From Proteromonas lacertae (Eukaryota; Sar; Bigyra; Opalinata; Proteromonadidae), in assembly GCA_002245135.1 (NCBI GenBank), contig NGBS01000589.1:1-64000 (forward strand): a DNA stretch of 64,000 nt. The letters are read 5' to 3'. This document shows positions 1-24,220 of the stretch, piece by piece. The notes beneath the pieces are model-generated. The model searched no databases and was not told where the DNA came from. It saw nothing but the letters and a program-made list of their open reading frames with translations. A program made the position numbers and the translations under genes. Numbering within the stretch: position 1 is the stretch's first letter; each line of letters begins with the position of its first letter.

Positions 1-1125
1 TATTTATTGTTACATAGTGTGAATTCCATCTTCATTTTTTATTAGGCAATAGATTTACAACACTATATTTTTTAGATTTCTTTTGTTTAGATAAATGAAT
101 GGGTAAGAATATTTCTTCTTTATCTTTAGCAATATCAATATAAAATATATTCACATTTAGTCGATTCTTTGTTTCAAACTTATCAATAGATTCATTGTCT
201 GTAGCATCAACAGGGAATGTTAACATACTCCAATCATGTTTCTTTTCATACATTTTGTATTTTTCAGGTTTATCTTTATTACATTGTAGATTATTAGAAT
301 ATAAAAGAGCATAGTACACTCCACTTAAAGCATTCATTATCTTCATTTATTACATTTGTTAAACATCTAAGACCTTGAAGTTTAGCAGGTAAAACAATAA
401 AACTACTTCCACGTATCACTTTAAATTTTGTTACATATAATTCTATAGTATTTACTCTAGCAAAAGTAAGACCACTTTGAGGATGATTTGAATCATCTTC
501 TGATATTTGTGTAAATATATTTTCCAGTATAGTTTGTATTTCACCTACAGTAGACATTTTTGTTATTTCACATAGTCTACTACGACTAAATATAGAAACT
601 TCATCATCACTGTCAGTAGACTCATCAGGTATATAAATTGAACGTACAATAAAGAAAAATTTGATCATATTCATAGTATCAGCTAGTTCATGTAATATAT
701 CTTTGATATCACTATTATTAACAAAATCATGATAACATTGTTGTGGTGTACTGTAATTTCTATTATTATAATTGAAAACCCATTTCCTGGTAACACCTTG
801 AGATGATTTATCAACTTCTCTAGCATCACGTATTCTATCATTAAATCTTTGATTTTGGTTAGGTTTTGGTAGGGAAGAAGGCATTAATCCACCAAAGAAT
901 GTATCACTGATTATTGGTATATCATTATTATATCTTTTTTTATTTTGAATAGCATCTGTACTAAATAATGGCGCTAATCTTCGTTTTGGAGCTTCTTCTG
1001 GTGGTTTCATCTGTATGTTTATGTTTATGATGATGGTGATGCTTATGCTTATGATGTTTATTTTTATTAAAAGTTTGTTCTAGAAGTTTAAAAAATGCTT
1101 TTAAAAGCTTTTTATGTTTGCTCAT
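1..1125 (-). pseudogene. Polinton/Maverick polymerase-type N-terminal protein, frameshifted remnant
   Basis: Read on the minus strand, a His/Lys-rich leader (start near 1125) is followed by an open frame from 1010 to 294. That frame ends in a block containing RGSSFIVLPAKLQG and NEDNECFKWSV. A second frame (about 315 to 32) continues with FPVDATDNESIDKFE and NVNIFYIDIAK. From family knowledge, the order 'RGSSxIxLP - N.D..CFKW - FP....DIDKFE - NVF - VNLL' is the hallmark of the N-terminal part of Polinton/Maverick DNA polymerase proteins and their arthropod and cnidarian relatives. The two frames can only be joined by a +1 shift near 310-316. Past 32 a further shift is needed to keep matching the family. 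No polymerase catalytic domain is visible before the window edge. I read it as a decayed gene, though a sequencing indel could explain one of the shifts. Confidence 0.6.
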
Positions 1126-1285
1126 TATATAGATAGAATTCGCGAAATAAATCAAAAATGGAAATATGAAATTTGATTGGTCGGATGATTTGATTGGTCG
1201 ACTTTAAAAATAAAAAGAAATTTTCATTTTCATTTTTCTTGACATTTTTTAATCATTTTTTATTTTCATCTCTCCCTTATATAAA

Positions 1286-2053
1286 ATGAGTAACGAAACA
1301 CCCTATGAAGCTACAGATGTAGAATTCAGTGATTACTACAAGAATCCAAAGTTATGTAACAAGTGGATTATTAAAGGAACTGTTGAGAGTATTACAGTTA
1401 AGCCTACTAAAACTAGTCAATATGTATTGATTACTTTTGTTCATGATTTGGATCATAAAGTTGTAATTAATAATGGAAGAGATTTTGAAACATATTCAGC
1501 TGATGAAGTGAAATATGTATTGAAACAAATTTATGATAGAAACGAGAATGACTTTATAGAAAAAATCATTCGTGGATATTTGATTAGTGTAGGATGTAGA
1601 GAACCTCAACATGGTATTAAATACTTCCACAATTTCAATTCTATTATGATATGGGATAATAGTAACTATAGAGTTCCATCTGATGTTGATGTTGGTAGTA
1701 AAATTGCTGTAAGTGTTGTTGATAATCAAATCTCTATTAAGAGTAATGGTACTCAAAACTTTGTTAATCATAGAGTTTGTAGTGATATTGTTGGTTATGA
1801 TGAAAATCCTGATTTAGCTACAACTATTAGAAGAAGTAATGAGAAGAAAATTAAGAAAGAACAAGCTAATCAAAACAAATTTGTTTCACCTCCAAGAATT
1901 AAGAGAACTAAGATAGAAGATAGTGATTTAATTAGTACTCGTAGACCATTCCCTGCTAAGAAAGTAATTAGTAATGGTTTTATTAGTGCTGCTAAGTCTA
2001 TTAACTTTGGTAACGCTTTAAGTGATAAGGATTTGGGAGAGGTAGAAGAATGA
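1286..2053 (+). CDS. Hypothetical protein of the Polinton-like block, possible OB-fold N-terminus
   Basis: A 255-aa intronless ORF with an ATG start 8 nt after a TATA-like run. I do not recognise the family. The first ~110 residues alternate beta-strand-like segments (KWIIKGTVESITV, QYVLITFVHD, HKVVINNG), which would suit an OB-like barrel. This is an inference from pattern only. The C-terminal third (about 185-255) is basic and low in hydrophobics, with a cluster PPRIKRTK that could be a nuclear localisation signal. It lies 65 bp upstream of the integrase ORF on the same strand and diverges from the polymerase remnant, so a role in the mobile element (for example single-strand DNA binding) is plausible but unproven. 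Confidence 0.6.
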   Translation: MSNETPYEATDVEFSDYYKNPKLCNKWIIKGTVESITVKPTKTSQYVLITFVHDLDHKVVINNGRDFETYSADEVKYVLKQIYDRNENDFIEKIIRGYLISVGCREPQHGIKYFHNFNSIMIWDNSNYRVPSDVDVGSKIAVSVVDNQISIKSNGTQNFVNHRVCSDIVGYDENPDLATTIRRSNEKKIKKEQANQNKFVSPPRIKRTKIEDSDLISTRRPFPAKKVISNGFISAAKSINFGNALSDKDLGEVEE

Positions 2054-2118
2054 TTTAATTATTTTAATTCATTAATTCTTTAAATATATATCATTCATAT
2101 TTTTTATATATTGTTTGA

Positions 2119-3279
2119 ATGTCACTACAAGATAAAATAAATGAGTTATACAAAACATATGGTTATTTAAACAAACGAGACTTTATTAATTTCTCTGTAA
2201 ATGAACTTGAGAATAACTTTAAAAAATCTGACATTAAAAAAGCTAGTAGTGAACTTGTAGAGTCTAAACCAGATTATCAAATCACTGCAACTAAAAGGAA
2301 TAGAATTAAATATGAAATTGAAAAGTTACCTGGGTCATATCAAATAGATTTGGTGTTTTTCAACAATACAAAAGTTCCATTTTTGTTAATTATAGAAGTT
2401 GTTAGTCGTAAGTGTTGGATATATTATGTTAAATCTAAATCAGAAAATGATGTATATCCAGTGTTTGAAAAATGGTTTTATCAGGGTATGCAACCTAAGG
2501 ATGAAAACGCTCGTTTTGTAGGAAGTATATTGTCAGATGAAGAGTCTGGTATTATCTATGGTAAGAAATTTTTAGATTTGTTTAACAAAAATCATATACG
2601 ATTTATACTTAAAGAACGTAATGAACATAATATAATGAAAATATTGGATCGATGTGTGAGAACTATTAAAGATATGTTTTATAGAAAAATTAATACATTT
2701 TCTGATGAAGAATTTGATAAAATTAACAATATTGAATCATTGTGTAATATAGTATATACTGTTGTAGATGATTACAATGCAAAACCACATTCTGCACTCA
2801 ATAATCTAACTCCAAATGAAGTATTCAATGATTTTGAAGTCCAAGATAGATTGTATAAAGAATCCCATGCTAGAAACTTAAAGAAGCGTAAAAGTGATAC
2901 TCATTTTAAAGCTGATGATTTTGTCAGAATAAAAGAACGTAGAGATAACAAACTTCAAAAAACTACTTATTATACTGATAAAGTATACCAAATACACAAA
3001 GTTGGACCATTTTCATATTCTGTTAAGAACTTGGATGGAACAATACCTAGAGAATTCAATCCTAGAGATATAGGCTCATATAGATTCAAATCTCATGAAA
3101 TAAAAAGAGTACCAGTTAATAGTATTACAACAAATGGTAAGTTTAGATTAAGACAAATTCATAGTATAAATAATGAAGCACAACCTATAGAACCAGATAT
3201 TCAACCAGTACCAGAAGGCAGAAAAAGTAGATATGGTAGAGTATATAAGAAAAATTCGCTATTTAATGATTTCGTATAA
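2119..3279 (+). CDS. rve-type integrase of Polinton-like element
   Basis: A 386-aa intronless ORF. The catalytic core spans about 70-250: first Asp in YQIDLVFF, central strands PFLLIIEVVSRKCWIYYV, second Asp in SDEESG, then HNIMKILDRCVRTIK where families normally show N..VER.NRTLK. The block NAKPHSALNNLTPNEV matches the end of rve cores. The C-terminal part (about 280-345: FKADDFVRIKE, DKVYQIHKVG, YSVKNLDG) resembles the SH3-like barrel that follows the core in Polinton and Ginger integrases. The third acidic residue appears to be Asp rather than Glu, with 36 residues after the second Asp. It may therefore be a DDD variant or inactive. No N-terminal H2C2 zinc finger is visible. It catalyses strand transfer if active. 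Confidence 0.72.
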   Translation: MSLQDKINELYKTYGYLNKRDFINFSVNELENNFKKSDIKKASSELVESKPDYQITATKRNRIKYEIEKLPGSYQIDLVFFNNTKVPFLLIIEVVSRKCWIYYVKSKSENDVYPVFEKWFYQGMQPKDENARFVGSILSDEESGIIYGKKFLDLFNKNHIRFILKERNEHNIMKILDRCVRTIKDMFYRKINTFSDEEFDKINNIESLCNIVYTVVDDYNAKPHSALNNLTPNEVFNDFEVQDRLYKESHARNLKKRKSDTHFKADDFVRIKERRDNKLQKTTYYTDKVYQIHKVGPFSYSVKNLDGTIPREFNPRDIGSYRFKSHEIKRVPVNSITTNGKFRLRQIHSINNEAQPIEPDIQPVPEGRKSRYGRVYKKNSLFNDFV

Positions 3280-3417
3280 TTTTTATGTTTTTTATTTATG
3301 TTATTTTTTACATATAAAACAAACACCAATTTTCATCAAAGTAATGAATTCAAAGTGCTTTTTTCAAGTATATGGATTAAAGCATAAACCAGACAAATTT
3401 AAAGTATATATTAATAC

Positions 3418-4590
3418 TTATAAGTTCTTCATCATCTTCTCAAACTCTTCAGCTTTCTTTCTTTTCTCTTCTTCAATTCTTTTCTTAAACTCTTCTTCCA
3501 TCTTCTTTTCTAATTCATCGTTTTCTTTTTTCATCTTTTCTTCCATTTGTCTCTTTTGTTCTAATACCCATTTCTTTCTTAACTCTTCTTGTTGTCTCAT
3601 ATTCTCTTCTTCTTGAAGCATTCTAATAACCACTAATTCTTCTTTTCTTTTCTTTTCTGCTTCTTCTTGTTTTCTCTTTCTCTCTGCTTCTTCTTGTACT
3701 TTTCTAACTCTTTCTTCTTCTTGTTGTTTTTTCTTTTTTTCTTCATCTTCTTGTTTCTTTCTCTCTGCATCTTGATGCTTAATTTTCTCTTCTATCTCTT
3801 TTTGTTTTTCTTCATCTTTTTTAGTTAATTCAGCATTAAAATATTTCAATTCAGCATCCAGAATATCAATATCAGTAACATCAAGAAGTGTAGTATCAGA
3901 CCTTGGTGACATTGGAGGTGTAAAGGTAGGACTTTGGCTACTTAATAAATCATCAGCAGATGTTCTTGATTCAGTATCTTTCACAATTATACCCACTGGT
4001 TCGTCAACAAAATCAGAATCCTTAACAATCTTTCTTTTCTTTAAATGAATTAATTCATCATCACTATCAATAACTGCTTTTGTTTTAGGTTTCTTTACAG
4101 TATCAGTTCTTCTTTTATAAACTCTTTTAGGTTTTTGAGGTACAGTTGGTGGTGGTGGTTCTTGTTGTGGTTGTTGTTGTTGTTTTAACTGAGGTTGAAT
4201 AAAAGGTTTAATCTGTTTTACATCTGGTTTTACTATACTCTTCATCTCTTCGTCACTAAAGTATAAATTCATATACTCATTTTGATCTAATGTCTCTAGA
4301 TGTTTAATGGGAATTAACTTCTGATTATCAAACTTACATGAAAAGCAATAATAAACTGCTGTAGCTGACTTCTCTAATTCGATATAGTTGAATTGTGGTG
4401 GACTTTGCTTCTTCTTTGATTTTTTGCTGTCATCATAAGCCAAACTTTGAATATACATTTCGTCGCAAAATGTCTTTAAATGCTGGATGTTACGACTCAC
4501 TTTCTGATAGAACTCATAAGCCTGTCCCTTTAATGGAAGCTGGGAGCATAATTCTGAATTGGTTGGTTGTTTGACTCTGTCTGCTGGCAT
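3418..4590 (-). CDS. Coiled-coil, charged protein of the Polinton-like block (unknown function)
   Basis: A 390-aa intronless ORF. Residues 1-110 are globular-looking with aromatic and cysteine residues (AVYYCFSCKF). Residues 135-230 are low-complexity Gln/Pro and basic (QQQQPQQEPPPP, KPKRVYKRR). From about 255 to the end there is one long uninterrupted helix of Glu/Lys/Arg heptads, predicted to form a coiled coil about 135 residues long. I do not recognise a family. It converges with the integrase, with 138 bp between their stops. An internal structural or scaffolding role in a virus-like element would fit but is speculation. Confidence 0.6.
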   Translation of the reverse strand: MPADRVKQPTNSELCSQLPLKGQAYEFYQKVSRNIQHLKTFCDEMYIQSLAYDDSKKSKKKQSPPQFNYIELEKSATAVYYCFSCKFDNQKLIPIKHLETLDQNEYMNLYFSDEEMKSIVKPDVKQIKPFIQPQLKQQQQPQQEPPPPTVPQKPKRVYKRRTDTVKKPKTKAVIDSDDELIHLKKRKIVKDSDFVDEPVGIIVKDTESRTSADDLLSSQSPTFTPPMSPRSDTTLLDVTDIDILDAELKYFNAELTKKDEEKQKEIEEKIKHQDAERKKQEDEEKKKKQQEEERVRKVQEEAERKRKQEEAEKKRKEELVVIRMLQEEENMRQQEELRKKWVLEQKRQMEEKMKKENDELEKKMEEEFKKRIEEEKRKKAEEFEKMMKNL

Positions 4591-4773
4591 TTTTGATTGA
4601 ATGATTGAATAATTAATTTTCTATTAAGGTAAAAAAAAGCAAAAAATAAAATACTGAAAATGAGTAAGAAAAGTGTGAATGAAAAATAAAACGGTTTTTC
4701 TTTATGTAATATTTAAGGGGGTACAAAAAATAACTTTCAAAAATCAAATACGAAAAAAAGACTATATATAAAA

Positions 4774-5157
4774 TTAAATATTTATGATTGGTTTTTGAAT
4801 TTCAATCTCAGGTTTATTAATAGGAATAATTTCTATTTCTGTTTCTAATTGCTCTTCATCTTCATTATCACTAGCATTTCTAGAATTTATTCTACTATTT
4901 TCAGGTGTTAAAGTAAATGGAATAGCAGAAACAATAGTAGATTTTCTTAATGCTAATTGAACAGCAGGTTCTGGCTCAGCTAATATTTCACTTAATTCTG
5001 GAGGACAGGCTTTATGATAACACCATGCACATATTCTCTTGCATTTATAAAGAACCCATAGAACTACACAACCTAATAAAATATACAGTTCTTGTTTCAA
5101 ACCATTTAAAGTATCTTTCATATCACCTAACATAACTAATGATGAATTATATGGCAT
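4774..5157 (-). CDS. Small single-pass membrane protein of the Polinton-like block
   Basis: A 127-aa intronless ORF. Residues about 24-40 (ELYILLGCVVLWVLYK) form one strong transmembrane helix. A Cys-rich basic stretch follows (CKRICAWCYHKAC), then an acidic tail with Ile/Pro-Glu alternation. There is no cleavable signal peptide. By the positive-inside rule the long C-terminal tail would be cytoplasmic. The family is not recognised. It sits in a row of three minus-strand ORFs (5222-5809 and 5938-6279 upstream). Small membrane proteins are common in virus-like elements, but nothing here proves that role. Confidence 0.5.
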   Translation of the reverse strand: MPYNSSLVMLGDMKDTLNGLKQELYILLGCVVLWVLYKCKRICAWCYHKACPPELSEILAEPEPAVQLALRKSTIVSAIPFTLTPENSRINSRNASDNEDEEQLETEIEIIPINKPEIEIQKPIINI

Positions 5158-5221
5158 ATTATGTGAAATTATTTATATATAAAAACGTATAGAAATATAA
5201 AAATGAATTTTAAACCAAAAG

Positions 5222-5809
5222 TTAATTAATTATACAGGTAGGTGATGTAGTTAGATCTACTGTAGCTACCCCCGGGATAGGACTTGTAGAACAATCTACT
5301 TTAGCAATATCTACCTTTGGTCGACCCTCGGCAGTGGAACTATTCTCTACTTTACGCTTCTTATCTTCTCCACTATTATCACTTCCTTTCTTTACTTCTT
5401 CATATCTTCTCTTCTTCTTATTTCTACACTCTGTACAAGATTTATAGAATACACCTTCACTCTTATAACCAAATTCATCATTAGCTTTCTTCTTACCACA
5501 AGTACTACATATCTGTGAATCTGGATCTAACTTTGTTATATCCTTTCTTTTTTTAGGTTTAGATTCGCTTTGTTTTTCTTCCTTCACTTCTTCTTCTTCT
5601 TCCATTGTTATATCAATATCATCACCTGGTTGTTCACTCCATTCTGGATCATCTTCATACTCTTCAATCACAGAATACATACCATCCAACATATCCTTGA
5701 ATACTTTAATAATTAATGATTTTACTTCAGACATATCATTCTCATACATTTCACCTTCTTGTAAGTGTTTTTCAATATTAGCATCTAATTCGTTTTGTAT
5801 ATCACTCAT
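5222..5809 (-). CDS. Zinc-motif (CxxC...CxxC) acidic/basic protein
   Basis: A 195-aa intronless ORF. Residues 1-90 are acidic and probably disordered or helical, with an EEEEEVKEEK run. A basic patch (KPKKRKD) precedes a zinc-binding motif at about 100-130: CSTCGKKK...F...SCTEC. This C-x2-C-x(3)-K-x(n)-F-x(n)-C-x2-C pattern is a widespread small zinc ribbon seen in many viral and mobile-element proteins. A second basic cluster (NKKKRRYEE) follows. Specific function unknown; DNA binding is the simplest guess. The C-terminus is Ser/Thr rich. Confidence 0.6.
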   Translation of the reverse strand: MSDIQNELDANIEKHLQEGEMYENDMSEVKSLIIKVFKDMLDGMYSVIEEYEDDPEWSEQPGDDIDITMEEEEEVKEEKQSESKPKKRKDITKLDPDSQICSTCGKKKANDEFGYKSEGVFYKSCTECRNKKKRRYEEVKKGSDNSGEDKKRKVENSSTAEGRPKVDIAKVDCSTSPIPGVATVDLTTSPTCIIN

Positions 5810-5937
5810 TTTAATTTATGTAGATTATTTCAAAAATCGCAAGAAATTTATGAATGAAAAGAATTATGTAATATTATGTTTATTTCTATTCAGCCAATCA
5901 AATAACAAAAATTCAATTAAAACCAATGATTTAAGAA

Positions 5938-6279
5938 TTAGTTATGAAATCTTAGTCTTTCTTCAATGATGTTCTTTTCATCAATACCATAACGCTTTAA
6001 CATCTTTGTTTTTCTGCGCTCTTCTTCAGGATCAACCCATTTTCTAGGGCGTATGGTTGCTTGTGCTACTCTGGTTGGTTTATGAATTGCACGCCATTCT
6101 TCATACTTTCTGTCATCCTCATCAGCTGTATCAGAAGTATACCACATTACTACTGGAGGTGGCTCAGCTACTATTCTAGCTACTTCACTTTCAATGATTG
6201 CATAGATTCTTTCAAATTCTTCATCTTCACGCTTATTTCTATCTTCTATATTAACATTCTCGATCCAAATTCTTGACAT
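5938..6279 (-). CDS. Hypothetical 113-aa protein
   Basis: The ORF starts at ATG 6279 (MSRIWIENVN). The frame stays open a little upstream but without another ATG. The protein is charged and rich in Arg and Glu, with WYTSDTADEDDRKYEEWR and PRKWVDPEEERRKTKMLKRYG as visible segments. It has no membrane segment and no motif I recognise. It is the first gene of the minus-strand trio and the last ORF before the structured noncoding stretch that leads into the 121-bp array. Confidence 0.45.
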   Translation of the reverse strand: MSRIWIENVNIEDRNKREDEEFERIYAIIESEVARIVAEPPPVVMWYTSDTADEDDRKYEEWRAIHKPTRVAQATIRPRKWVDPEEERRKTKMLKRYGIDEKNIIEERLRFHN

Positions 6280-6423
6280 TTTTTTGAAATTATGATTGAT
6301 AAAAAACAATAAGAAAAAGTTAAATGAAATTATATACAAAAAACAAAAGAAAAATTTTAACCCATAAAATTACTCATACACTAAAATATATAAAGAAATT
6401 TAAACTCACCACTTGCTCCAGTA

Positions 6424-6506
6424 TAACCCGTACCAAAAACTAATTTACACTCAAATCGCTTATTCTTACCTGTAGAAGGCACCTAAGAATAGTCTGGTAC
6501 GGGTTA
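6424..6506. repeat. Nested inverted repeat / potential stem-loop
   Basis: A perfect 12-bp pair TAACCCGTACCA (6424-6435) and TGGTACGGGTTA (6495-6506) encloses a second perfect 7-bp pair ATTCTTA (6462-6468) and TAAGAAT (6484-6490). The GC content is well above the surroundings. It lies between the last Polinton-like ORF and the left 121-bp array, so it could belong to an element terminus or encode a small structured RNA. Confidence 0.6.
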
Positions 6507-6545
6507 CCCACCTACAGTGATATTCTTACGGTTATACATATATTA

Positions 6546-9500
6546 TACATTATACAATAACCATTTTTAACTATCAGTTTACTTCGATTTAGAACAAACT
6601 AACATAATTCTTTCTAATCTTCGATTTTGTACTCATTTCATTCTATATATTATACTCAATTATATATACATTATACAATAACCATTTTTAACTATCAATT
6701 TACTTCGATTTAGAACAAACTAACATAATTCTTTCTAATCTTCGATTTTGTACTCATTTCATTCTATATATTATACTCAATTATATATACATTATACAAT
6801 AACCATTTTTAACTATCAATTTACTTCGATTTAGAACAAACTAACATAATTCTTTCTAATCTTCGATTTTGTACTCATTTCATTCTATATATTATACTCA
6901 ATTATATATACATTATACAATAACCATTTTTAACTATCAATTTACTTCGATTTAGAACAAACTAACATAATTCTTTCTAATCTTCGATTTTGTACTCATT
7001 TCATTCTATATATTATACTCAATTATATATACATTATACAATAACCATTTTTAACTATCAATTTACTTCGATTTAGAACAAACTAACATAATTCTTTCTA
7101 ATCTTCGATTTTGTACTCATTTCATTCTATATATTATACTCAATTATATATACATTATACAATAACCATTTTTAACTATCAATTTACTTCGATTTAGAAC
7201 AAACTAACATAATTCTTTCTAATCTTCGATTTTATACTCATTTCATTCTATATATTATACTCAATTATATATACATTATACAATAACCATTTTTAACTAT
7301 CAATTTACTTCGATTTAGAACAAACTAACATAATTCTTTCTAATCTTCGATTTTGTACTCATTTCATTCTATATATTATACTCAATTATATATACATTAT
7401 ACAATAACCATTTTTAACTATCAATTTACTTCGATTTAGAACAAACTAACATAATTCTTTCTAATCTTCGATTTTGTACTCATTTCATTCTATATATTAT
7501 ACTCAATTATATATACATTATACAATAACCATTTTTAACTATCAATTTACTTCGATTTAGAACAAACTAACATAATTCTTTCTAATCTTCGATTTTGTAC
7601 TCATTTCATTCTATATATTATACTCAATTATATATACATTATACAATAACCATTTTTAACTATCAATTTACTTCGATTTAGAACAAACTAACATAATTCT
7701 TTCTAATCTTCGATTTTGTACTCATTTCATTCTATATATTATACTCAATTATATATACATTATACAATAACCATTTTTAACTATCAATTTACTTCGATTT
7801 AGAACAAACTAACATAATTCTTTCTAATCTTCGATTTTGTACTCATTTCATTCTATATATTATACTCAATTATATATACATTATACAATAACCATTTTTA
7901 ACTATCAATTTACTTCGATTTAGAACAAACTAACATAATTCTTTCTAATCTTCGATTTTGTACTCATTTCATTCTATATATTATACTCAATTATATATAC
8001 ATTATACAATAACCATTTTTAACTATCAATTTACTTCGATTTAGAACAAACTAACATAATTCTTTCTAATCTTCGATTTTGTACTCATTTCATTCTATAT
8101 ATTATACTCAATTATATATACATTATACAATAACCATTTTTAACTATCAATTTACTTTCGATTTAGAACAAACTAACATAATTCTTTCTAATCTTCGATT
8201 TTGTACTCATTTCATTCTATATATTATACTCAATTATATATACATTATACAATAACCATTTTTAACTATCAATTTACTTCGATTTAGAACAAACTAACAT
8301 AATTCTTTCTAATCTTCGATTTTGTACTCATTTCATTCTATATATTATACTCAATTATATATACATTATACAATAACCATTTTTAACTATCAATTTACTT
8401 CGATTTAGAACAAACTAACATAATTCTTTCTAATCTTCGATTTTGTACTCATTTCATTCTATATATTATACTCAATTATATATACATTATACAATAACCA
8501 TTTTTAACTATCAATTTACTTCGATTTAGAACAAACTAACATAATTCTTTCTAATCTTCGATTTTGTACTCATTTCATTCTATATATTATACTCAATTAT
8601 ATATACATTATACAATAACCATTTTTAACTATCAATTTACTTCGATTTAGAACAAACTAACATAATTCTTTCTAATCTTCGATTTTGTACTCATTTCATT
8701 CTATATATTATACTCAATTATATATACATTATACAATAACCATTTTTAACTATCAATTTACTTCGATTTAGAACAAACTAACATAATTCTTTCTAATCTT
8801 CGATTTTGTACTCATTTCATTCTATATATTATACTCAATTATATATACATTATACAATAACCATTTTTAACTATCAATTTACTTCGATTTAGAACAAACT
8901 AACATAATTCTTTCTAATCTTCGATTTTGTACTCATTTCATTCTATATATTATACTCAATTATATATACATTATACAATAACCATTTTTAACTATCAATT
9001 TACTTCGATTTAGAACAAACTAACATAATTCTTTCTAATCTTCGATTTTGTACTCATTTCATTCTATATATTATACTCAATTATATATACATTATACAAT
9101 AACCATTTTTAACTATCAATTTACTTCGATTTAGAACAAACTAACATAATTCTTTCTAATCTTCGATTTTGTACTCATTTCATTCTATATATTATACTCA
9201 ATTATATATACATTATACAATAACCATTTTTAACTATCAGTTTACTTCGATTTAGAACAAACTAACATAATTCTTTCTAATCTTCGATTTTGTACTCATT
9301 TCATTCTATATATTATACTCAATTATATATACATTATACAATAACCATTTTTAACTATCAATTTACTTCGATTTAGAACAAACTAACATAATTCTTTCTA
9401 ATCTTCGATTTTGTACTCATTTCATTCTATATATTATACTCAATTATATATACATTATACAATAACCATTTTTAACTATCAATTTACTTCGATTTAGAAC

Positions 9501-11052
9501 AAACTAACATAATTCTTTCTAATCTTCGATTTTGTACTCATTTCATTCTATATATTATACTCAATTATATATACATTATACAATAACCATTTTTAACTAT
9601 CAATTTACTTCGATTTAGAACAAACTAACATAATTCTTTCTAATCTTCGATTTTATACTCATTTCATTCTATATATTATACTCAATTATATATACATTAT
9701 ACAATAACCATTTTTAACTATCAATTTACTTCGATTTAGAACAAACTAACATAATTCTTTCTAATCTTCGATTTTGTACTCATTTCATTCTATATATTAT
9801 ACTCAATTATATATACATTATACAATAACCATTTTTAACTATCAATTTACTTCGATTTAGAACAAACTAACATAATTCTTTCTAATCTTCGATTTTGTAC
9901 TCATTTCATTCTATATATTATACTCAATTATATATACATTATACAATAACCATTTTTAACTATCAATTTACTTCGATTTAGAACAAACTAACATAATTCT
10001 TTCTAATCTTCGATTTTGTACTCATTTCATTCTATATATTATACTCAATTATATATACATTATACAATAACCATTTTTAACTATCAATTTACTTCGATTT
10101 AGAACAAACTAACATAATTCTTTCTAATCTTCGATTTTGTACTCATTTCATTCTATATATTATACTCAATTATATATACATTATACAATAACCATTTTTA
10201 ACTATCAATTTACTTCGATTTAGAACAAACTAACATAATTCTTTCTAATCTTCGATTTTATACTCATTTCATTCTATATATTATACTCAATTATATATAC
10301 ATTATACAATAACCATTTTTAACTATCAATTTACTTCGATTTAGAACAAACTAACATAATTCTTTCTAATCTTCGATTTTGTACTCATTTCATTCTATAT
10401 ATTATACTCAATTATATATACATTATACAATAACCATTTTTAACTATCAATTTACTTCGATTTAGAACAAACTAACATAATTCTTTCTAATCTTCGATTT
10501 TGTACTCATTTCATTCTATATATTATACTCAATTATATATACATTATACAATAACCATTTTTAACTATCAATTTACTTCGATTTAGAACAAACTAACATA
10601 ATTCTTTCTAATCTTCGATTTTATACTCATTTCATTCTATATATTATACTCAATTATATATACATTATACAATAACCATTTTTAACTATCAATTTACTTC
10701 GATTTAGAACAAACTAACATAATTCTTTCTAATCTTCGATTTTGTACTCATTTCATTCTATATATTATACTCAATTATATATACATTATACAATAACCAT
10801 TTTTAACTATCAATTTACTTCGATTTAGAACAAACTAACATAATTCTTTCTAATCTTCGATTTTGTACTCATTTCATTCTATATATTATACTCAATTATA
10901 TATACATTATACAATAACCATTTTTAACTATCAATTTACTTCGATTTAGAACAAACTAACATAATTCTTTCTAATCTTCGATTTTGTACTCATTTCATTC
11001 TATATATTATACTCAATTATATATACATTATACAATAACCATTTTTAACTAT
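6546..11052. repeat. Left 121-bp tandem array, about 37 copies
   Basis: The anchor CCATTTTT occurs first at 6561 and last at 11039. That distance of 4478 nt equals 37 periods of 121 plus one extra base, which is a T inserted near 8155 (tactttcgat). Units are almost identical. The only variants noticed are CAG for CAA in the first unit and near 9240, and TTTATACTC for TTTGTACTC near 7233, 9653, 10257 and 10620. Each unit contains CTTCGATTT twice, about 40 nt apart. There are no unique spacers and no long ORF. Confidence 0.95.
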
Positions 11053-11141
11053 TATTTTAAAATGAAAAATATCCGTTACTGAATCTTTCTATTTTGTTTT
11101 TTGTACTATCCTTACATCCCTTGTAATTAATATTTTGTTGT
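11053..11141. other. Short AT-rich leader between left array and transposase ORF
   Basis: Unique sequence of about 90 bp with T-rich runs. It presumably contains the transposase promoter, but no defined motif is recognisable. Confidence 0.3.
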
Positions 11142-13790
11142 ATGAATCATGTAAGTATTGAAAATGGATTTGTAAAAATCCTATATAAATTAAATAAAGA
11201 TTCAACTCATTCCATTGTTGATGGAAGAAAAAAGGATTTGAAGAGAATATGCAACAAATATCCACCGTTGGATTCTTTTTCACCTATATCAGAATCAATT
11301 TTTATGTTTAAATTTAAATCGGTTGATGATTTATATTTCTTAATTCATGTGTATGCAGAGCAGTACAATATTAAAATTGAAGCTAAAAGACAAGATCAAG
11401 CTTCAAATAAGAAAATTACATTTAAATGTCATTATAGTGGATGTTCTTTTCGTGTAATCGCTCATTACAATCGTTATTTTGTACAAGTTAAATTATATCC
11501 ACATAATCATCCACTTATTAGGTTAAAAAATTACAAAATAATAAATATATTAACAAATGAAATAAAAGATTTAGTGGAAAGTTTGGTTCGCAATATTAAA
11601 TCGTCATCTCCAGAAATAATTAAGGTAGTGAAGGAAAATTATAATGTAAGTGAAAGTGTATTGAAGAAAATTGAATATGTAATTAGGAGAATAAAAGGCG
11701 AAATGAGAAATGAAATAGATGGTCTATATAATCTATATAATATCATCAAAGATAAATATACATACTACGAGAATAAGAATGCTTTATTGGTTATATTAGA
11801 TAAAAGAATACTCTATACCTATAATACTCTTTTGGCGGATGGGACTTTTGGGGTATTCTTAAATAATAATCAATTGTATCTAGTTTACTCCCAAATTTCC
11901 CCTAAATTGATACTTTTAGTGGCTTTTGCCATAACTAATAAAAGGGATAAAGATACTTACACTTTCATCTATCAACATTTAAATCAGTATAATAATATAA
12001 AATATATAATTCACGATCATGAAGCAGCTGTTGTATATTCATTAAAATCTTTAGGAATTAAATTTGTGAATGACATATATCATCTTTTTATATATATTAA
12101 AGATGAAAGAATAAAAAAGATATTGTATAAATTTATTAAACATCCCCAATGTAGAGATGAAATACTTAAAAATATAAATGAAAACGACCAGAAATACTTC
12201 AACAAGGAGGGGGTAATGGAGTTTGGAATTTTTGGATGTCACTCCACTAGTATGTTGGAATCGTACAACAACATCATAAAGAATAAATTGAAAAAAAGAA
12301 GATCAAGAGAAGATACAGTACTAATAGCTATTGAAGATATATACCAAACACAAAAACGAAGAATAGAAGAAACAATATCTATTCAGAATATAAATAAAAA
12401 TACTAATGATGATATTCTATGGCCTGAATGCAACGAAAATTTACAAAAACAGTTGATTTTATTAGCTACTGAAAACTATGAAGTATATAATAATAATAAT
12501 ATTTATATTATTAATAATACATATACTGTTACCTTAAATGATAATCTATTATTCTGTTCATGCCATTACAGGGAATTTACTGGTATTCCCTGTAGTCACA
12601 TGATTTATATAAATATCAAATACGATATGCATAAAACATTAATAGCAAATGAATGTTTTACTTCTTTCTATTTAGATAATAAACAAAAAACTGATTATTA
12701 TATAAATTTCATTTATCCTAAAGAAATAGAAAATATAACAAATACTACAGAAGATGATGATGATAGAAGTGATGATGCAGTTGATGATTCAGTTGAGTTA
12801 TGTGATAAGCCTATTAACTCTAATAATATTACTTATACTGATAGCTATAAAAAAATACTAGCTATTGTACAAAAGATTTATAAGTCAACAATGCTGGAAG
12901 ATATTTGTCAAGAAACTATAGAATCTGTAAATGATAAATTGATATCATCTTTACGTAATGAATTGGACAACAATAGTTATATGTACTTTTTGCAAAACAA
13001 ATATAATACATTAAATCATTCTATAAAAATAAAGATTATAACATATATATACCTACTTTCATCACCAGCAACAATTATAAATGATACTATATTAAATTAC
13101 ATAAATAATGAAATCACCAGAAGAACCATTAAAATTCCTCCAAGAGTTAAATCTCCATCAGAGTCATATAAACCTAAAAAAAGAATTAATAAAAATTCAA
13201 TATTAATAGAAAATGAATGTTCTACTTCCGTTTTTGTGGATAACAAAAAACAAATTAATGATACATCTGTTGTTCCTAATAACAAAGCTATAATATTAAA
13301 TAATTTTATACAATTTCAAAATATACAACTTACTGTAACTAATTTTAATAAAATTATGCACATATTTAAAGTTGACGAGGTTATGGATCCCTATATATTT
13401 TACAGTTCTATTAAAATAAATATAAACAAATATACATATATACCAATTTGTTACAAAAATCACTGGAGTGTCTTGATCAACAGGAATAGAAACAAAATAA
13501 CCCATTTTGATAGTACTGGTAATCATTTAATTGATGATACATCTGATTTTATCTACAAAAAATTAAACATACAATATACAAATATTAATAAGTATAATTT
13601 GAGCTGTCAATACAGCGATTTCTGTTGTGGTTATTTTGTAATATATATAATATTGTCACTAATGCTCAATGATTCAATACAAGTACTGAAGGATAATGAA
13701 GTTTTAGAATTATTGAAGAATAAAATTATCAATTTATATAACGAGGATTCTGATAGGATAATTAAAATAATCTGTGAAAAATATGTATAA
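11142..13790 (+). CDS. MULE-type transposase fused to C48 (Ulp1-like) cysteine peptidase
   Basis: An 882-aa intronless ORF. Residues about 75-125 form a FAR1/WRKY-GCM1-like DNA-binding zinc fold (CHYSGCSFRV ... HNHPL). The MULE core follows: first Asp in LLADGTFGVF (~232), the long strand region, second acidic site in IIHDHEAAVV (~290) with the family His in YHLF, then SMLESYNNIIK (~373) carrying the likely Glu. A SWIM zinc finger CSC-x9-CSH lies near 470-485. An acidic linker (~540-560) follows. The last ~150 residues carry the C48 triad signature: NHWSV (His ~773), HFDSTG (Asp ~788), then CQYSDFCCGYF (Gln and nucleophile Cys ~822-828). Transposase plus Ulp1-like domain is known from some plant MULEs (KI-MULEs) as neighbouring or fused ORFs. 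A complete single-ORF fusion here looks intact. Confidence 0.88.
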   Translation: MNHVSIENGFVKILYKLNKDSTHSIVDGRKKDLKRICNKYPPLDSFSPISESIFMFKFKSVDDLYFLIHVYAEQYNIKIEAKRQDQASNKKITFKCHYSGCSFRVIAHYNRYFVQVKLYPHNHPLIRLKNYKIINILTNEIKDLVESLVRNIKSSSPEIIKVVKENYNVSESVLKKIEYVIRRIKGEMRNEIDGLYNLYNIIKDKYTYYENKNALLVILDKRILYTYNTLLADGTFGVFLNNNQLYLVYSQISPKLILLVAFAITNKRDKDTYTFIYQHLNQYNNIKYIIHDHEAAVVYSLKSLGIKFVNDIYHLFIYIKDERIKKILYKFIKHPQCRDEILKNINENDQKYFNKEGVMEFGIFGCHSTSMLESYNNIIKNKLKKRRSREDTVLIAIEDIYQTQKRRIEETISIQNINKNTNDDILWPECNENLQKQLILLATENYEVYNNNNIYIINNTYTVTLNDNLLFCSCHYREFTGIPCSHMIYINIKYDMHKTLIANECFTSFYLDNKQKTDYYINFIYPKEIENITNTTEDDDDRSDDAVDDSVELCDKPINSNNITYTDSYKKILAIVQKIYKSTMLEDICQETIESVNDKLISSLRNELDNNSYMYFLQNKYNTLNHSIKIKIITYIYLLSSPATIINDTILNYINNEITRRTIKIPPRVKSPSESYKPKKRINKNSILIENECSTSVFVDNKKQINDTSVVPNNKAIILNNFIQFQNIQLTVTNFNKIMHIFKVDEVMDPYIFYSSIKININKYTYIPICYKNHWSVLINRNRNKITHFDSTGNHLIDDTSDFIYKKLNIQYTNINKYNLSCQYSDFCCGYFVIYIILSLMLNDSIQVLKDNEVLELLKNKIINLYNEDSDRIIKIICEKYV

Positions 13791-14563
13791 CACTTTCATT
13801 ATGTTATTATTTTGTTGATTGATTTCTATATTATTCATTTACCATCGAATATATATTCATTTTTTCAATATCCTCTACAATAAAGAGTATTTTCATACTT
13901 ATATTCACTAAACTTGCTAATCTCCTATACTATTTCATGGTTTTTTACTATTGAAGAATTCCTTAAATGTTTGTTGTAATTTTATAATACGAGATAAAAC
14001 ACCTACTATTACAAAACGTTTCATTTATACCAAAATAATACATTTTAAATGGATGATGAAAACAGCTATGCTATGGTTATTTACTTCCTTCTAAATCTTA
14101 TACAAATTGAAATAATTCAGGCTTCTCTTCTTATTTAACATTACACACTATCCATAAATACAAAAGTCACACAATTTGGTAATTTTTATAAATTCTAGTT
14201 CTTGCATCTATGCATTAATTCTACAACGAAATTACACATATTGACAATTATTCTTGCTTAAATCTATTTATTAATCAATTACTATAATTCTTCCCTAATT
14301 TACTTGTGTATGTCAACTAAGATATTTATAAAATTTTGATATTTTGACTATCACAATTATCTTCCATTATAACAGTCCTGCAGCCTAATGATTAAAATGT
14401 GATGTTCTTCTTATTAAAAAGTATCAATAATCTAAATAAAAAAAATAAATCAGAAGAAATACTTAATTTCATAACTGGTGTAGTAAAGCATTAATACTAA
14501 TCTTATAAAATAAATTGATAAATGTCATTTAAAATGTCAGATTTACTAAGACTATAAAAGAAA
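13791..14563. other. AT-rich noncoding segment inside the element
   Basis: No ORF longer than a few dozen codons and no repeat or RNA motif recognised. It is the 3' flank of the transposase up to the right array. Confidence 0.5.
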
Positions 14564-16998
14564 TAAACTGATAGTTAAAAATGGTTATTGTATAATGTAT
14601 ATATAATTGAGTATAATATATAGAATGAAATGAGTACAAAATCGAAGATTAGAAAGAATTATGTTAGTTTGTTCTAAATCGAAGTAAACTGATAGTTAAA
14701 AATGGTTATTGTATAATGTATATATAATTGAGTATAATATATAGAATGAAATGAGTACAAAATCGAAGATTAGAAAGAATTATGTTAGTTTGTTCTAAAT
14801 CGAAGTAAACTGATAGTTAAAAATGGTTATTGTATAATGTATATATAATTGAGTATAATATATAGAATGAAATGAGTACAAAATCGAAGATTAGAAAGAA
14901 TTATGTTAGTTTGTTCTAAATCGAAGTAAACTGATAGTTAAAAATGGTTATTGTATAATGTATATATAATTGAGTATAATATATAGAATGAAATGAGTAC
15001 AAAATCGAAGATTAGAAAGAATTATGTTAGTTTGTTCTAAATCGAAGTAAATTGATAGTTAAAAATGGTTATTGTATAATGTATATATAATTGAGTATAA
15101 TATATAGAATGAAATGAGTACAAAATCGAAGATTAGAAAGAATTATGTTAGTTTGTTCTAAATCGAAGTAAACTGATAGTTAAAAATGGTTATTGTATAA
15201 TGTATATATAATTGAGTATAATATATAGAATGAAATGAGTACAAAATCGAAGATTAGAAAGAATTATGTTAGTTTGTTCTAAATCGAAGTAAATTGATAG
15301 TTAAAAATGGTTATTGTATAATGTATATATAATTGAGTATAATATATAGAATGAAATGAGTACAAAATCGAAGATTAGAAAGAATTATGTTAGTTTGTTC
15401 TAAATCGAAGTAAACTGATAGTTAAAAATGGTTATTGTATAATGTATATATAATTGAGTATAATATATAGAATGAAATGAGTACAAAATCGAAGATTAGA
15501 AAGAATTATGTTAGTTTGTTCTAAATCGAAGTAAACTGATAGTTAAAAATGGTTATTGTATAATGTATATATAATTGAGTATAATATATAGAATGAAATG
15601 AGTACAAAATCGAAGATTAGAAAGAATTATGTTAGTTTGTTCTAAATCGAAGTAAATTGATAGTTAAAAATGGTTATTGTATAATGTATATATAATTGAG
15701 TATAATATATAGAATGAAATGAGTACAAAATCGAAGATTAGAAAGAATTATGTTAGTTTGTTCTAAATCGAAGTAAATTGATAGTTAAAAATGGTTATTG
15801 TATAATGTATATATAATTGAGTATAATATATAGAATGAAATGAGTACAAAATCGAAGATTAGAAAGAATTATGTTAGTTTGTTCTAAATCGAAGTAAATT
15901 GATAGTTAAAAATGGTTATTGTATAATGTATATATAATTGAGTATAATATATAGAATGAAATGAGTACAAAATCGAAGATTAGAAAGAATTATGTTAGTT
16001 TGTTCTAAATCGAAGTAAATTGATAGTTAAAAATGGTTATTGTATAATGTATATATAATTGAGTATAATATATAGAATGAAATGAGTACAAAATCGAAGA
16101 TTAGAAAGAATTATGTTAGTTTGTTCTAAATCGAAGTAAATTGATAGTTAAAAATGGTTATTGTATAATGTATATATAATTGAGTATAATATATAGAATG
16201 AAATGAGTACAAAATCGAAGATTAGAAAGAATTATGTTAGTTTGTTCTAAATCGAAGTAAACTGATAGTTAAAAATGGTTATTGTATAATGTATATATAA
16301 TTGAGTATAATATATAGAATGAAATGAGTACAAAATCGAAGATTAGAAAGAATTATGTTAGTTTGTTCTAAATCGAAGTAAACTGATAGTTAGAAATGGT
16401 TATTGTATAATGTATATATAATTGAGTATAATATATAGAATGAAATGAGTACAAAATCGAAGATTAGAAAGAATTATGTTAGTTTGTTCTAAATCGAAGT
16501 AAACTGATAGTTAAAAATGGTTATTGTATAATGTATATATAATTGAGTATAATATATAGAATGAAATGAGTACAAAATCGAAGATTAGAAAGAATTATGT
16601 TAGTTTGTTCTAAATCGAAGTAAACTGATAGTTAGAAATGGTTATTGTATAATGTATATATAATTGAGTATAATATATAGAATGAAATGAGTACAAAATC
16701 GAAGATTAGAAAGAATTATGTTAGTTTGTTCTAAATCGAAATAAATTGATAGTTAAAAATGGTTATTGTATAATGTATATATAATTGAGTATAATATATA
16801 GAATGAAATGAGTACAAAATCGAAGATTAGAAAGAATTATGTTAGTTTGTTCTAAATCGAAGTAAATTGATAGTTAAAAATGGTTATTGTATAATGTATA
16901 TATAATTGAGTATAATATATAGAATGAAATGAGTACAAAATCGAAGATTAGAAAGAATTATGTTAGTTTGTTCTAAATCGAAATAAATTGATAGTTAA
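14564..16998. repeat. Right 121-bp tandem array, about 20 copies, inverted relative to the left array
   Basis: The anchor ATGGTTATTG occurs first at 14581 and last at 16880, exactly 19 periods of 121 with no indel. Orientation is the reverse complement of the left array. Variants differ from the left: ACTGATAG is common here, TTAGAAATGG occurs twice exactly two units apart (near 16391 and 16633), and CGAAATAAATTG occurs twice two units apart (near 16738 and 16980). The last pair suggests duplication of two-unit blocks at the outer end. Confidence 0.95.
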
Positions 16999-18121
16999 TA
17001 TTACGTTGTTATTGAGTATTTCGTAATCTCTTCTAATCTTAACGATCTAGATAATTTCTTGTATTACTTGTATTTTTATAGTTTAAATTAACAAATTAAA
17101 ACTTATACATGTCAAATGATTATTAAAATTGAATATTCTCTTCGCATACAAAGAGCGAGTTCAAAATTTAAATAAATTCAAATTTGATCAAGCCAAAGCT
17201 TGTGTCAATATTTCTTTTTTTGAATTTTCTCTTGAACTATCAAAATAATTAGATTTAAAACTGGAGGTCCAGTGTATACATATTATGTACAATAGATTTA
17301 TGTACAAAATTCTAATGATGTTTCTAATGACTAACATTGATGTTGTCCAAATTCAACACGCATTTCAGAATAGTTTAATTTAATTACAAAAGTCAATGAA
17401 ATTTTAATATTAGCGCTGTAAAGTGGCTGGAAGTACCGAGTTCAAATTTTGAACTCGAGTCCAATTCGCAACTTTCCTAAGAATTTGACCCCTTCTGACG
17501 TCATTTCTGTCTCGAGTTTTCTATCAAACTTTTGAAATGTTTTTCTTGATTTTTCTTATTATATAGTGTTTTTTAAATTACTTTACTATAAATATTAGAA
17601 TTAATAATGAACAATTTACCATTTGATATACATAGAAACTAAAATACAATTAAATCTACCTAAATAGCTAATGTTCATATATTTTATAATTTATAAATGA
17701 AATGTTTATTAAACAATTTATAATTATTTATTTTATATAGCTTATTTTAGTTAACTGCTTCTATTTACTAATTACTTAAATATGAGACTACTGCATATTT
17801 CATTTACTCATATTGGATAAGAACCATTATTAGTTGATTATAAATTTAAGTTAATTCTATTCTAAAGTCATCCTATACAGTCATTTAAAAATATATCCGT
17901 TTCCTTTGATATTTGAATTTAATTTTGAAAATGTAAGTGCTATATATATTATTTATATATTATTCTTATATATTATTATTATATTATAAATTATATACTC
18001 ATGTAATCATATTAATATATTTATTACCTGATTTTAGATTTAATATAACAATCATCCTTACAGTACTTGTTTATCAAATGTTGTATATGGTTTTTATACT
18101 TATTACACTTGATTTTTTGTG
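16999..18121. other. Noncoding AT-rich flank
   Basis: No gene recognised. There is a near-palindrome GAGTTCAAATTTTGAACTC at about 17447-17465 (9-bp arms). Otherwise AT-rich sequence with only short open frames. Confidence 0.4.
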
Positions 18122-23900: not shown

Positions 23901-24220
23901 ATAATAATAAAGAAAGAAGTGAAATAGTTAATACAATCTCATCAATATTTGTAATGAACAGTGAAGATTATGAACTTAAAGTGAAGTATCATGAATCCAA
24001 GTTGATGCAAGGTAAGGACAACAGTTGTGGTTATTATGTGTTATTTTTCTTAGCTGCGAGAATCAACTTCTTGGATATTGAAAAGATCCCAAACATTGAA
24101 TCATTTAATATTGACTATTTTATCAAAGATATTAAGAAAGGATTACAGAATTTAGATGATAATGAAAAGGCAAAGATGTATTTCTATGCAAGTAAAAGAC
24201 CAACTTATTACAAGAATTAA
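20925..24220 (+). CDS. Ginger-like DD35E integrase fused to C48 cysteine peptidase
   Basis: Three exons (20925-22637, 22673-22781, 22814-24220) join in frame across GTA...TAG introns of 35 and 32 nt. The 5' exon opens after a TAG acceptor at 20924 and I could not find its start. An H2C2-like finger (HLEFAH ... CNGC) precedes the rve core: Asp in VVIDLIEM, Asp in SDNGAEF, Glu in GKVERMNR, exactly 35 residues apart. A highly charged Asp/Glu/Lys linker follows (about 290-480), then an SH3-like end (EGDVVVYSENR ... KLYI). The last ~130 residues hold a C48 triad: LHWTLF, TVYDSMG, MQGKDNSCGYYV. Ginger elements are cut-and-paste DNA transposons with retroviral-like integrases, and accessory peptidase domains are reported in some. 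It looks intact downstream of the missing start. Confidence 0.82.

What the first reader, a model, noticed from the sequence alone, without database searches (positions are those of the whole stretch)
6546..16998. MULE-type transposon whose terminal inverted repeats are giant inverted satellite arrays
About 37 copies of a 121-bp unit on the left and 20 copies in opposite orientation on the right bracket a single transposase gene. Both inner edges end at nearly the same point of the unit. This is the architecture of foldback elements such as FB/Galileo, but with a MULE enzyme, and I know of no described element with this exact plan. It could show how a transposon seeds or captures satellite DNA.
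Basis: partly seen in the sequence, partly recalled or inferred. Interest (0 to 1): 0.9.

Follow-up and report, generated by a model that had tools for sequence, protein, structure and literature searches.

The report
Jumping gene with satellite-array arms
This is a foldback-type jumping gene of the Mutator kind whose two end repeats each contain a block of near-identical 121-base units, and its copies indicate that such satellite-sized blocks can be carried whole from one place in the genome to another.

Summary
The arrays and the single transposase gene are real: 37 and 20 units of 121 bp in opposite orientation around an 882-aa ORF. The arrays are not the element's ends. Outside them lies a 479-bp non-repetitive terminal repeat with a 9-bp target duplication. 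The window's left end was split off by another mobile element and lies on contig C276. I found 14 insertions of this family in the 50.2-Mb assembly: 13 have matching 9-bp duplications, and 6 of 9 tested have a full-length empty site. All 376 detectable units lie on 21 contigs that carry this element; none is a free satellite. Arms hold 1 to 38 units. Copies at different sites share arm lengths and the order of unit variants, so arrays transpose intact. Yet the window copy and C312 differ by one base in their 3508-bp cores while having 38/20 and 23/13 units, so length changes faster than sequence. The plan itself is known: Tm1, Muta1 and FARE are MULEs with foldback-like or long repeat ends. 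New, as far as I saw, are the scale, the 121-bp unit and the unit-by-unit record. Host unidentified; no biochemistry; array lengths not read-verified.

The parts
1..6544 (.). End part of a different, high-copy mobile element that interrupts the 5' array and separates the window's element from its left terminal repeat on contig C276
   Evidence: Its last 446 bp match 41 listed places, the window's own included (40 of 211 candidates scored, so a lower bound). Its two termini abut array sequence on C633 and C276, with a possible 6-bp duplication ATATAT. The window starts at the contig start.
6545..11059 (+). 5' array: 37 units of 121 bp (one more unit, the outermost, is on C276)
11060..11141 (+). 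Leader between 5' array and ORF, kept in one class of deletion derivatives
11142..13790 (+). Transposase ORF, 882 aa: N-terminal zinc-finger-like region (HxH at 121-123), MULE catalytic region (D233, D292, E373 inferred), SWIM finger 461-488, C-terminal Ulp1-like cysteine protease match at about residues 762-869
   Evidence: Pfam SWIM 4.2e-5 and MULE 0.022 (below cut-off) for the whole protein; alignment; Peptidase_C48 3.2e-7 when the last 162 residues are scanned alone, not listed in the whole-protein scan
13791..14560 (+). 3' non-coding part of the core
   Evidence: Found over its full 770 bp in C312, C677, C953, C1104 and C137, 769 bp in C138, in pieces in C163
14561..16998 (-). 3' array: 20 units of 121 bp, inverted relative to the 5' array
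16999..17477 (-). Outer terminal inverted repeat, 479 bp, not repetitive; terminus GGAAAGTTGCG read inward
   Evidence: 33 listed places with full-length or nearly full-length matches at 96-100% (40 of 83 candidates scored); 479 of 479 identical to the other end on C276
17478..17486 (.). 9-bp target site duplication taagaattt
   Evidence: Same 9 bp next to the other terminus on C276; single copy in empty sites

Best explanation
It is a cut-and-paste MULE DNA transposon of foldback type. The transposase acts on the 479-bp outer repeats and makes 9-bp target duplications (shown: ends, duplications, empty sites; inferred: the enzyme's action). Just inside each outer repeat lies a 121-bp segment bracketed by a short direct repeat (about 19 bp in the 3' arm, 8 bp in the 5' arm). 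Unequal exchange or slippage between such repeats amplifies the segment into an array, separately in each arm (variation shown; process inferred). The inverted layout follows from the segment being part of an inverted repeat. The arrays travel with the element at transposition. Internal deletions produced short derivatives that moved with the same ends.
For: 14 insertions: 8 with perfect 9-bp duplications on one contig, 5 with matching duplications on two contig ends, 1 (C163/C281) without. Full-length empty sites for 6 of 9 joined flanks tested. 376 of 376 detectable units on contigs with the outer repeat. Arms of 1 to 38 units. Shared variant order at different sites: C312 and C874, 23 units with 1 difference (0 of 100,000 shuffles as close); C312 and C677, 13 of 13 (115 of 100,000); C651A and C651B, 10 of 10 (816 of 100,000); C651A and C168, 1 difference in 10 (809 of 100,000); C519 and C1039, no difference at 23 comparable units of 25 (0 of 100,000). 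Window and C312: 1 difference in 3508 bp of core, arrays 38/20 against 23/13. Among arms read to both edges, single-unit arms occur only in C163, C1104 and C953, the copies nearest the outgroup; bracketing direct repeats. A sister family at 43% protein identity has a 9-bp duplication and 2.34-kb ends without a 121-bp-type array.
Against: No transposition, binding or amplification was measured. The Pfam MULE hit is below its cut-off and the structure prediction failed (pLDDT 33.6). Five insertions were joined from two contigs by their duplications, so those five are not tests of the duplication. Three of 9 sites gave no full-length empty site. Several contigs end inside arrays and some are noisy: the 5' array of C677 (20 units, cut by the contig end) does not show the order of C874, with which it is joined, and the outer half of C1058 disagrees with C1039 at the same site, in part because the diagnostic base is deleted there. 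Short arms give the order test no power (651A_3 against 651B_3: 100,000 of 100,000; 519_5 against 1039_5: 49,984 of 100,000). For the 5' arms of the window and C312 the test did not show shared order (112 of 300 shuffles as good). Rooting by C985 rests on a very long branch.
Confidence: 0.88

Rival explanations
1. A pre-existing 121-bp satellite was captured by, or invaded by, a MULE, and the inverted layout is coincidence.
For: Units are alike as in a satellite: 99% within the window's arrays, 97-100% in the listed matches (list truncated).
Against: All 376 detectable units are on element-bearing contigs; single-unit arms exist; the layout is inverted in every copy where both arms were read.
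Confidence: 0.04
2. The inverted arrays or their lengths are assembly artefacts.
For: Contig ends often fall inside elements (C1045, C231, C605, C1104, C1056, C677, C874, C1058, C169, C138); C651 holds two copies in opposite orientation with the same arm lengths; some contigs carry many small indels.
Against: 13 sites with 9-bp duplications, 8 of them on one contig; full-length empty sites for 6 of 9; the same variant order recovered on separate contigs. The two C651 copies have different duplications.
Confidence: 0.06
3. The arrays are functional: each unit is a binding site for the transposase or a host factor, and selection favours long arms. This adds to the main explanation and does not replace it.
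For: Secondary binding sites are proposed in the literature for tandem repeats in transposon ends (PMC3573991, passages). Each unit contains CTTCGATTT twice.
Against: The outer repeat shares no word longer than 10 bp with the unit. Single-unit arms belong to inserted copies. The sister copy examined has no such array.
Confidence: 0.3
4. Same-length copies arose by segmental duplication or site-to-site conversion and not by transposition.
For: C163 shows arm-to-arm copying: the same insertion in both arms and 247 bp of mirrored flank.
Against: Copies with the same variant order have different sequence next to their ends and their own 9-bp duplications; conversion would have to span the whole element exactly.
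Confidence: 0.07

Closest known systems
Tm1 of Meloidogyne (PMC3169594, passages)
   Same: MULE transposase (Phantom subclass) in foldback-like ends with variable tandem repeats that differ between the two arms; 9-bp duplications; non-autonomous members
   Different: Unit about 14 bp, 1-9 consecutive copies; short asymmetric outer motifs; 496-aa protein; described as inactive and decaying
Muta1 and Muta5 of Aedes aegypti (PMC5225508, passages)
   Same: MULEs with subterminal tandem repeats in the ends; 8-9-bp duplications; Muta1 is called a type 2 Foldback element and moves in yeast
   Different: 12-bp and 15-bp units, 9 copies, ends of 145-151 bp; FLYWCH finger; 504- and 554-aa proteins; Muta5 did not move in yeast
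FARE of Arabidopsis (via passages of PMC4486113, and PMC3169594; original not held)
   Same: Foldback element classed with MULEs
   Different: Unit structure not compared here
Foldback FB4 of Drosophila (PMC8277862, passages)
   Same: Repetitive foldback ends of about 700 bp, 9-10-bp duplications, argued to be a MULE
   Different: Sequence not compared here; described there as nonautonomous with an unknown transposase
Tetris of Drosophila virilis (PMC4079207, passages)
   Same: About 220-bp tandem units inside long ends, amplified to long arrays; an allele pair differing by one unit
   Different: Apparently nonautonomous. Its authors suggest that larger arrays may have disrupted transposition; here copies with 23-25-unit arms appear to have moved.
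Galileo of Drosophila (PMC3573991, passages)
   Same: Tandem repeats of about 210 bp in the ends of one subfamily, arms vary independently
   Different: P-superfamily transposase; up to 3 units

Membership tests
MULE (Mutator-like) superfamily | MULE-type DDE transposase | tested here: inconclusive
   Pfam MULE 0.022 for the window ORF, below cut-off; 3 of 8 aligned sequences at E up to 1, best 0.0039. In the 8 aligned sequences (window plus 7) D233 and D292 are invariant and E373 is present in 7 by my reading; SWIM in 8 of 8.
MULE (Mutator-like) superfamily | 8-11 bp, usually 9-bp, target duplication | tested here: met
   8 insertions with both ends on one contig and a perfect 9-bp duplication; 5 more joined from two contigs by the duplication; 1 (C163) with both ends on one contig and no duplication. 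Sister copy C985 also 9 bp.
MULE (Mutator-like) superfamily | Terminal inverted repeats | tested here: met
   479-bp outer repeats, 0-5 mismatches between arms in the 12 elements compared, small gaps in 3
Phantom subclass of MULEs | N-terminal FLYWCH finger | tested here: inconclusive
   No FLYWCH hit in the 8 aligned sequences at E up to 1; a C..C..HxH-like pattern is seen by eye in the alignment
Phantom subclass of MULEs | Place in the Phantom clade of a MULE tree | not tested
   No named MULE sequences were brought in; homologue searches returned 2 and 4 unnamed proteins
Foldback-type (type 2) element | Long composite inverted ends with internal tandem repeats of variable number | tested here: met
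   Arms of 1-38 units of 121 bp
Foldback-type (type 2) element | Strand can fold back through its arms | not tested
   Expected from the inverted arms but not folded or assayed
Satellite DNA | Long homogeneous arrays independent of a transposon | tested here: not met
   376 of 376 detectable units on element-bearing contigs

The most novel reading that the evidence does not exclude
A MULE is a mobile satellite maker: it keeps a 121-bp segment in its ends, amplifies it to satellite-length arrays on a time scale shorter than one substitution per several kilobases, and carries finished arrays of 23-25 units intact to new sites. Amplification may be coupled to the transposition cycle through repair or template switching in the foldback arms. 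This goes against the suggestion made for Tetris that larger arrays disrupt mobility.
Probability: 0.35. Interest if true: 0.68.

Novelty: new variant of a known kind. Interest (0 to 1): 0.5.

Why it matters
How transposons give rise to satellite DNA is hard to follow when only remnants are left (my judgement). Here near-identical copies, some with an intact transposase ORF, keep a unit-by-unit record of their arrays at different sites. That separates transposition with the array unchanged from change in array length, and makes both measurable with long reads. It also extends MULE end length: a survey gives 14-500 bp (18-613 bp in its Phantom row; PMC6446971, passages), against about 5 kb for the longest arm here (pieced from two contigs) and 2.34 kb for the sister copy.

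Tried and rejected
Rejected: free satellite invaded by a MULE (376 of 376 detectable units on element contigs); arrays as the true termini (479-bp repeat outside them); inverted layout as assembly artefact (duplications and empty sites); plan unknown to science (Tm1, Muta1, FARE).

Led nowhere: structure prediction of the transposase with 3 sequences gave mean pLDDT 33.6 and was not used further. Homologue searches gave 2 and 4 unnamed proteins among 7997 scored candidates each, and one for a host RGS protein gave 1 unnamed protein, so the host was not identified. Two scans of viral contigs found no relatives of the transposase or of the neighbouring ORF. Search of solved structures with the 8-sequence alignment: none up to E 1; with the C-terminal domain: 15 up to E 10, best Sentrin-specific protease 5 at 0.00049. 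The order of units between unrelated length classes is mostly no more alike than shuffles (as good or better: 651A_5 against 519_3, 256 of 300; 519_3 against 312_3, 240 of 300; W_3 against 312_5, 297 of 300; 651A_5 against 312_3, 41 of 300; W_5 against 312_3, 23 of 300). One search assumed a wrong orientation for some loci and misordered C651; corrected.
Full report
OBSERVATION. The window holds a 121-bp tandem array at 6539-11059 (37.3 copies) and another at 14560-16998 (20.2 copies), both 99% matched, in opposite orientation around one 882-aa ORF at 11142-13790. The reversed-pattern control gave 0 against 376 genome-wide.

TRUE ENDS. In the same assembly (G000, 50.2 Mb, 1181 contigs; host not identified, GC of the window 22-30%) the sequence just right of the array, 16999-17477, recurs at 33 listed places with full-length or nearly full-length matches at 96-100%, plus 7 places with an 80% match over part of it; 40 of 83 candidates were scored, so this is a lower bound. 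In every copy read it lies outside the arrays, and it ends in GGAAAGTTGCG read inward, with single-base variants in C1104, C1056 and one end of C137 and C138. This 479-bp repeat is the terminal inverted repeat. Its two copies differ at 0-5 positions in the 12 elements compared, with small gaps in 3. The window's left copy is missing because a different high-copy element, of which 1-6544 is one end, sits in the array. The other side of that break is on contig C276: outer repeat, one array unit, then the other terminus of the intruder. Next to the outer repeat on C276 is taagaattt, the same 9 bp that follows the window's right end.

COPIES. I count 14 insertions. Eight have both ends on one contig with a perfect 9-bp duplication (C312, C953, C519, C168, C651A, C651B, C1039, C137). 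Five were joined from two contig ends by their duplications (C633+C276, C874+C677, C1104+C1056, C1045+C1090, C231+C605); there the duplication is the reason for joining and not a test, though 10 orphan ends fell into exactly 5 pairs. One (C163, with C281, not fetched, as its likely second allele) has no duplication. C1058, C169 and C138 share the right flank of C1039, C168 and C137. Joined flanks of nine sites were searched for empty sites; 40 of 550 candidates were scored. Six sites gave matches of at least 98% across the whole 300 bp with a single duplication: window 12 places, C519 24 places, C312, C651A, C168 and C1039 one each. For C953 two partial matches cross the junction (best 94% over 184 bp), for C137 one match of 80% crosses it, and for C651B none does. 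The window's element and C519 sit in sequences that recur elsewhere, so their empty sites are paralogous.

NO FREE SATELLITE. A 35-base word of the unit, with up to 3 mismatches and no gaps, occurs 376 times in the assembly (222 + 154, which lists only the first places). The stretches I fetched contain 374 of these (221 + 153), and the remaining 2 are the two places listed on C281. All 21 contigs concerned carry the 479-bp repeat.

ARRAY DYNAMICS. Unit numbers (5' arm / 3' arm): window 38/20; C312 23/13; C874 5' arm 23 and C677 3' arm 13; C651A, C651B and C168 10/6; C519 and C1039 3/25; C137 4/4; C953 1/3; C1104 at least 26-30/1; C163 1/1; C1045 at least 24 in the arm seen, C231 at least 7, C605 at least 1 (numbers in noisy contigs can be off). 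Three diagnostic positions classify each unit. With the outermost unit held fixed, C312 and C874 share the order of 23 units with one difference (0 of 100,000 shuffles as close); C312 and C677 share 13 of 13 (115 of 100,000); C651A and C651B share 10 of 10 (816 of 100,000); C651A and C168 differ at 1 of 10 (809 of 100,000). C519 and C1039 agree at all 23 comparable units; I left out the innermost unit and one unit of C1039 with an indel, and counted one unit with a 1-base deletion as its parent type (0 of 100,000). For the short arms the test has no power. Against this: the 5' array of C677 itself, 20 units in a noisy contig cut off by its end, does not show the order of C874, and C1058 disagrees with C1039 in its outer half although it is at the same site; in several C1058 units the diagnostic base is deleted. 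The copies that agree have different sequence next to their ends and their own duplications. Arrays of up to 25 units have therefore, on this evidence, moved as a block. Conversely, the window copy and C312 differ at 1 of 3508 core positions and 0-1 of 479 end positions but by 15 and 7 units. The order of units in their 3' arms is related (2 of 300 shuffles as good) while the 5' arms show no more likeness than shuffles (112 of 300). Length thus changes faster than sequence, and not at every transposition.

ORIGIN OF THE ARRAY. Among arms read to both edges, a single unit occurs only in C163, C1104 and C953, which lie nearest to the outgroup in a tree of the 479-bp repeats (support 0.75-0.97; the outgroup branch is very long, so this is weak). 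In that state the unit is bracketed by a direct repeat of about 19 bp in the 3' arm and 8 bp in the 5' arm, a plausible start for unequal exchange or slippage. A copy of a sister family (C985, 43% protein identity) has 2339-bp ends at 99.7% identity in which only short few-copy repeats (periods 13-17, 2-3 copies) were found, and a 9-bp duplication CTATTATTA. C163 shows arm-to-arm copying: the same inserted MITE-like sequence at the same point in both arms and 247 bp of flank mirrored beyond the ends.

THE PROTEIN. Pfam gives SWIM at 4.2e-5 and MULE at 0.022, below its cut-off. In 8 aligned sequences (the window's, 2 database proteins and 5 from the same genome) SWIM is found in all and D233 and D292 are invariant; E373 is present in 7 by my reading. 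The last 162 residues scanned alone match Peptidase_C48, the Ulp1 family, at 3.2e-7 and Peptidase_C57 at 6.4e-6, both above their cut-offs; C48 matches 2 of the 3 sequences scanned, and it was not listed when the whole protein was scanned. By profile the best solved structure is Sentrin-specific protease 5 at 0.00049. No FLYWCH domain was found. The structure prediction failed. Membership of the MULE superfamily rests on these hits together with 9-bp duplications and long ends; the subclass is open.

DERIVATIVES. C651A, C651B, C168, C169, C519, C1039 and C1058 keep about 190 bp of the 5' core, including the first 100 bp of the ORF, joined to the 3' array; C137 and C138 keep the 3' part of the core. 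They carry the same ends, so they were presumably mobilised in trans (inferred).

WHAT IS KNOWN. Tm1 (PMC3169594, passages read) is a MULE in foldback-like ends with 1-9 units of about 14 bp and 9-bp duplications. Muta1 (PMC5225508, passages) is a type 2 Foldback MULE with nine 12-bp units. FARE is classed with MULEs (PMC4486113 and PMC3169594, passages; the original was not held). FB4 is argued to be a MULE (PMC8277862, passages). Tetris (PMC4079207, passages) has 220-bp units in its ends that grew into satellites, and its authors suggest that larger arrays may have disrupted its transposition. Galileo (PMC3573991, passages) has up to 3 units of about 210 bp. A MULE survey gives ends of 14-500 bp, 18-613 bp in the Phantom row, and notes a minisatellite after the ORF in aphid Phantoms (PMC6446971, passages). 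In nine searches of an open-access library (some searches listed only part of their hits) I saw no listing of a MULE with tens of 100-bp-class units in its ends; most subscription papers are not in that library.

VERDICT. A real foldback-type MULE family whose near-identical copies suggest recent activity. It is a new variant of a known kind. Its value lies in the record of arrays moving whole and changing length.

Noticed in passing
window 1-6544 and C276:6700-7020: One end of a high-copy element (41 listed matches of its last 446 bp, the window's own included) with ORFs on both strands and a weak integrase-core (rve) hit, 0.0057, below cut-off, for 2119-3279. Its two termini flank the break in the 5' array, with a possible 6-bp duplication ATATAT. 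A Maverick/Polinton-like element is my guess from recall.
   Followed up: partly
window 21004-22701 and 22991-24220: An integrase-core (rve) ORF followed by an ORF with a Peptidase_C48 (Ulp1) domain. Ginger1 transposases are described with an integrase core and a C-terminal Ulp1 domain in one protein (PMC2836005, passages). The second ORF also aligns with the MULE's C-terminal domain (hhalign probability 92.7).
   Followed up: partly
L055/L075/L076 (C163:14300-21900): Both arms of this copy carry the same inserted MITE-like sequence at the same point, and 247 bp of flank is mirrored outside the ends, without target duplication: arm-to-arm copying or a mirror-image repair product.
   Followed up: partly
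L056/L057 (C985:11456-18285): Sister MULE copy with 2339-bp terminal inverted repeats at 99.7% identity and no 121-bp-type array, far above the 14-500 bp given for MULEs in a survey (PMC6446971, passages).
   Followed up: partly
L029-L032, L040, L041 (C651:11172-18250): Two derivative elements with identical array patterns inserted about 955 bp apart in opposite orientation, with different 9-bp duplications: perhaps local transposition.
   Followed up: partly
window 50403-56912: A 2169-aa uninterrupted ORF with Teneurin-like EGF domain hits near its C-terminus in an AT-rich genome.
   Followed up: no
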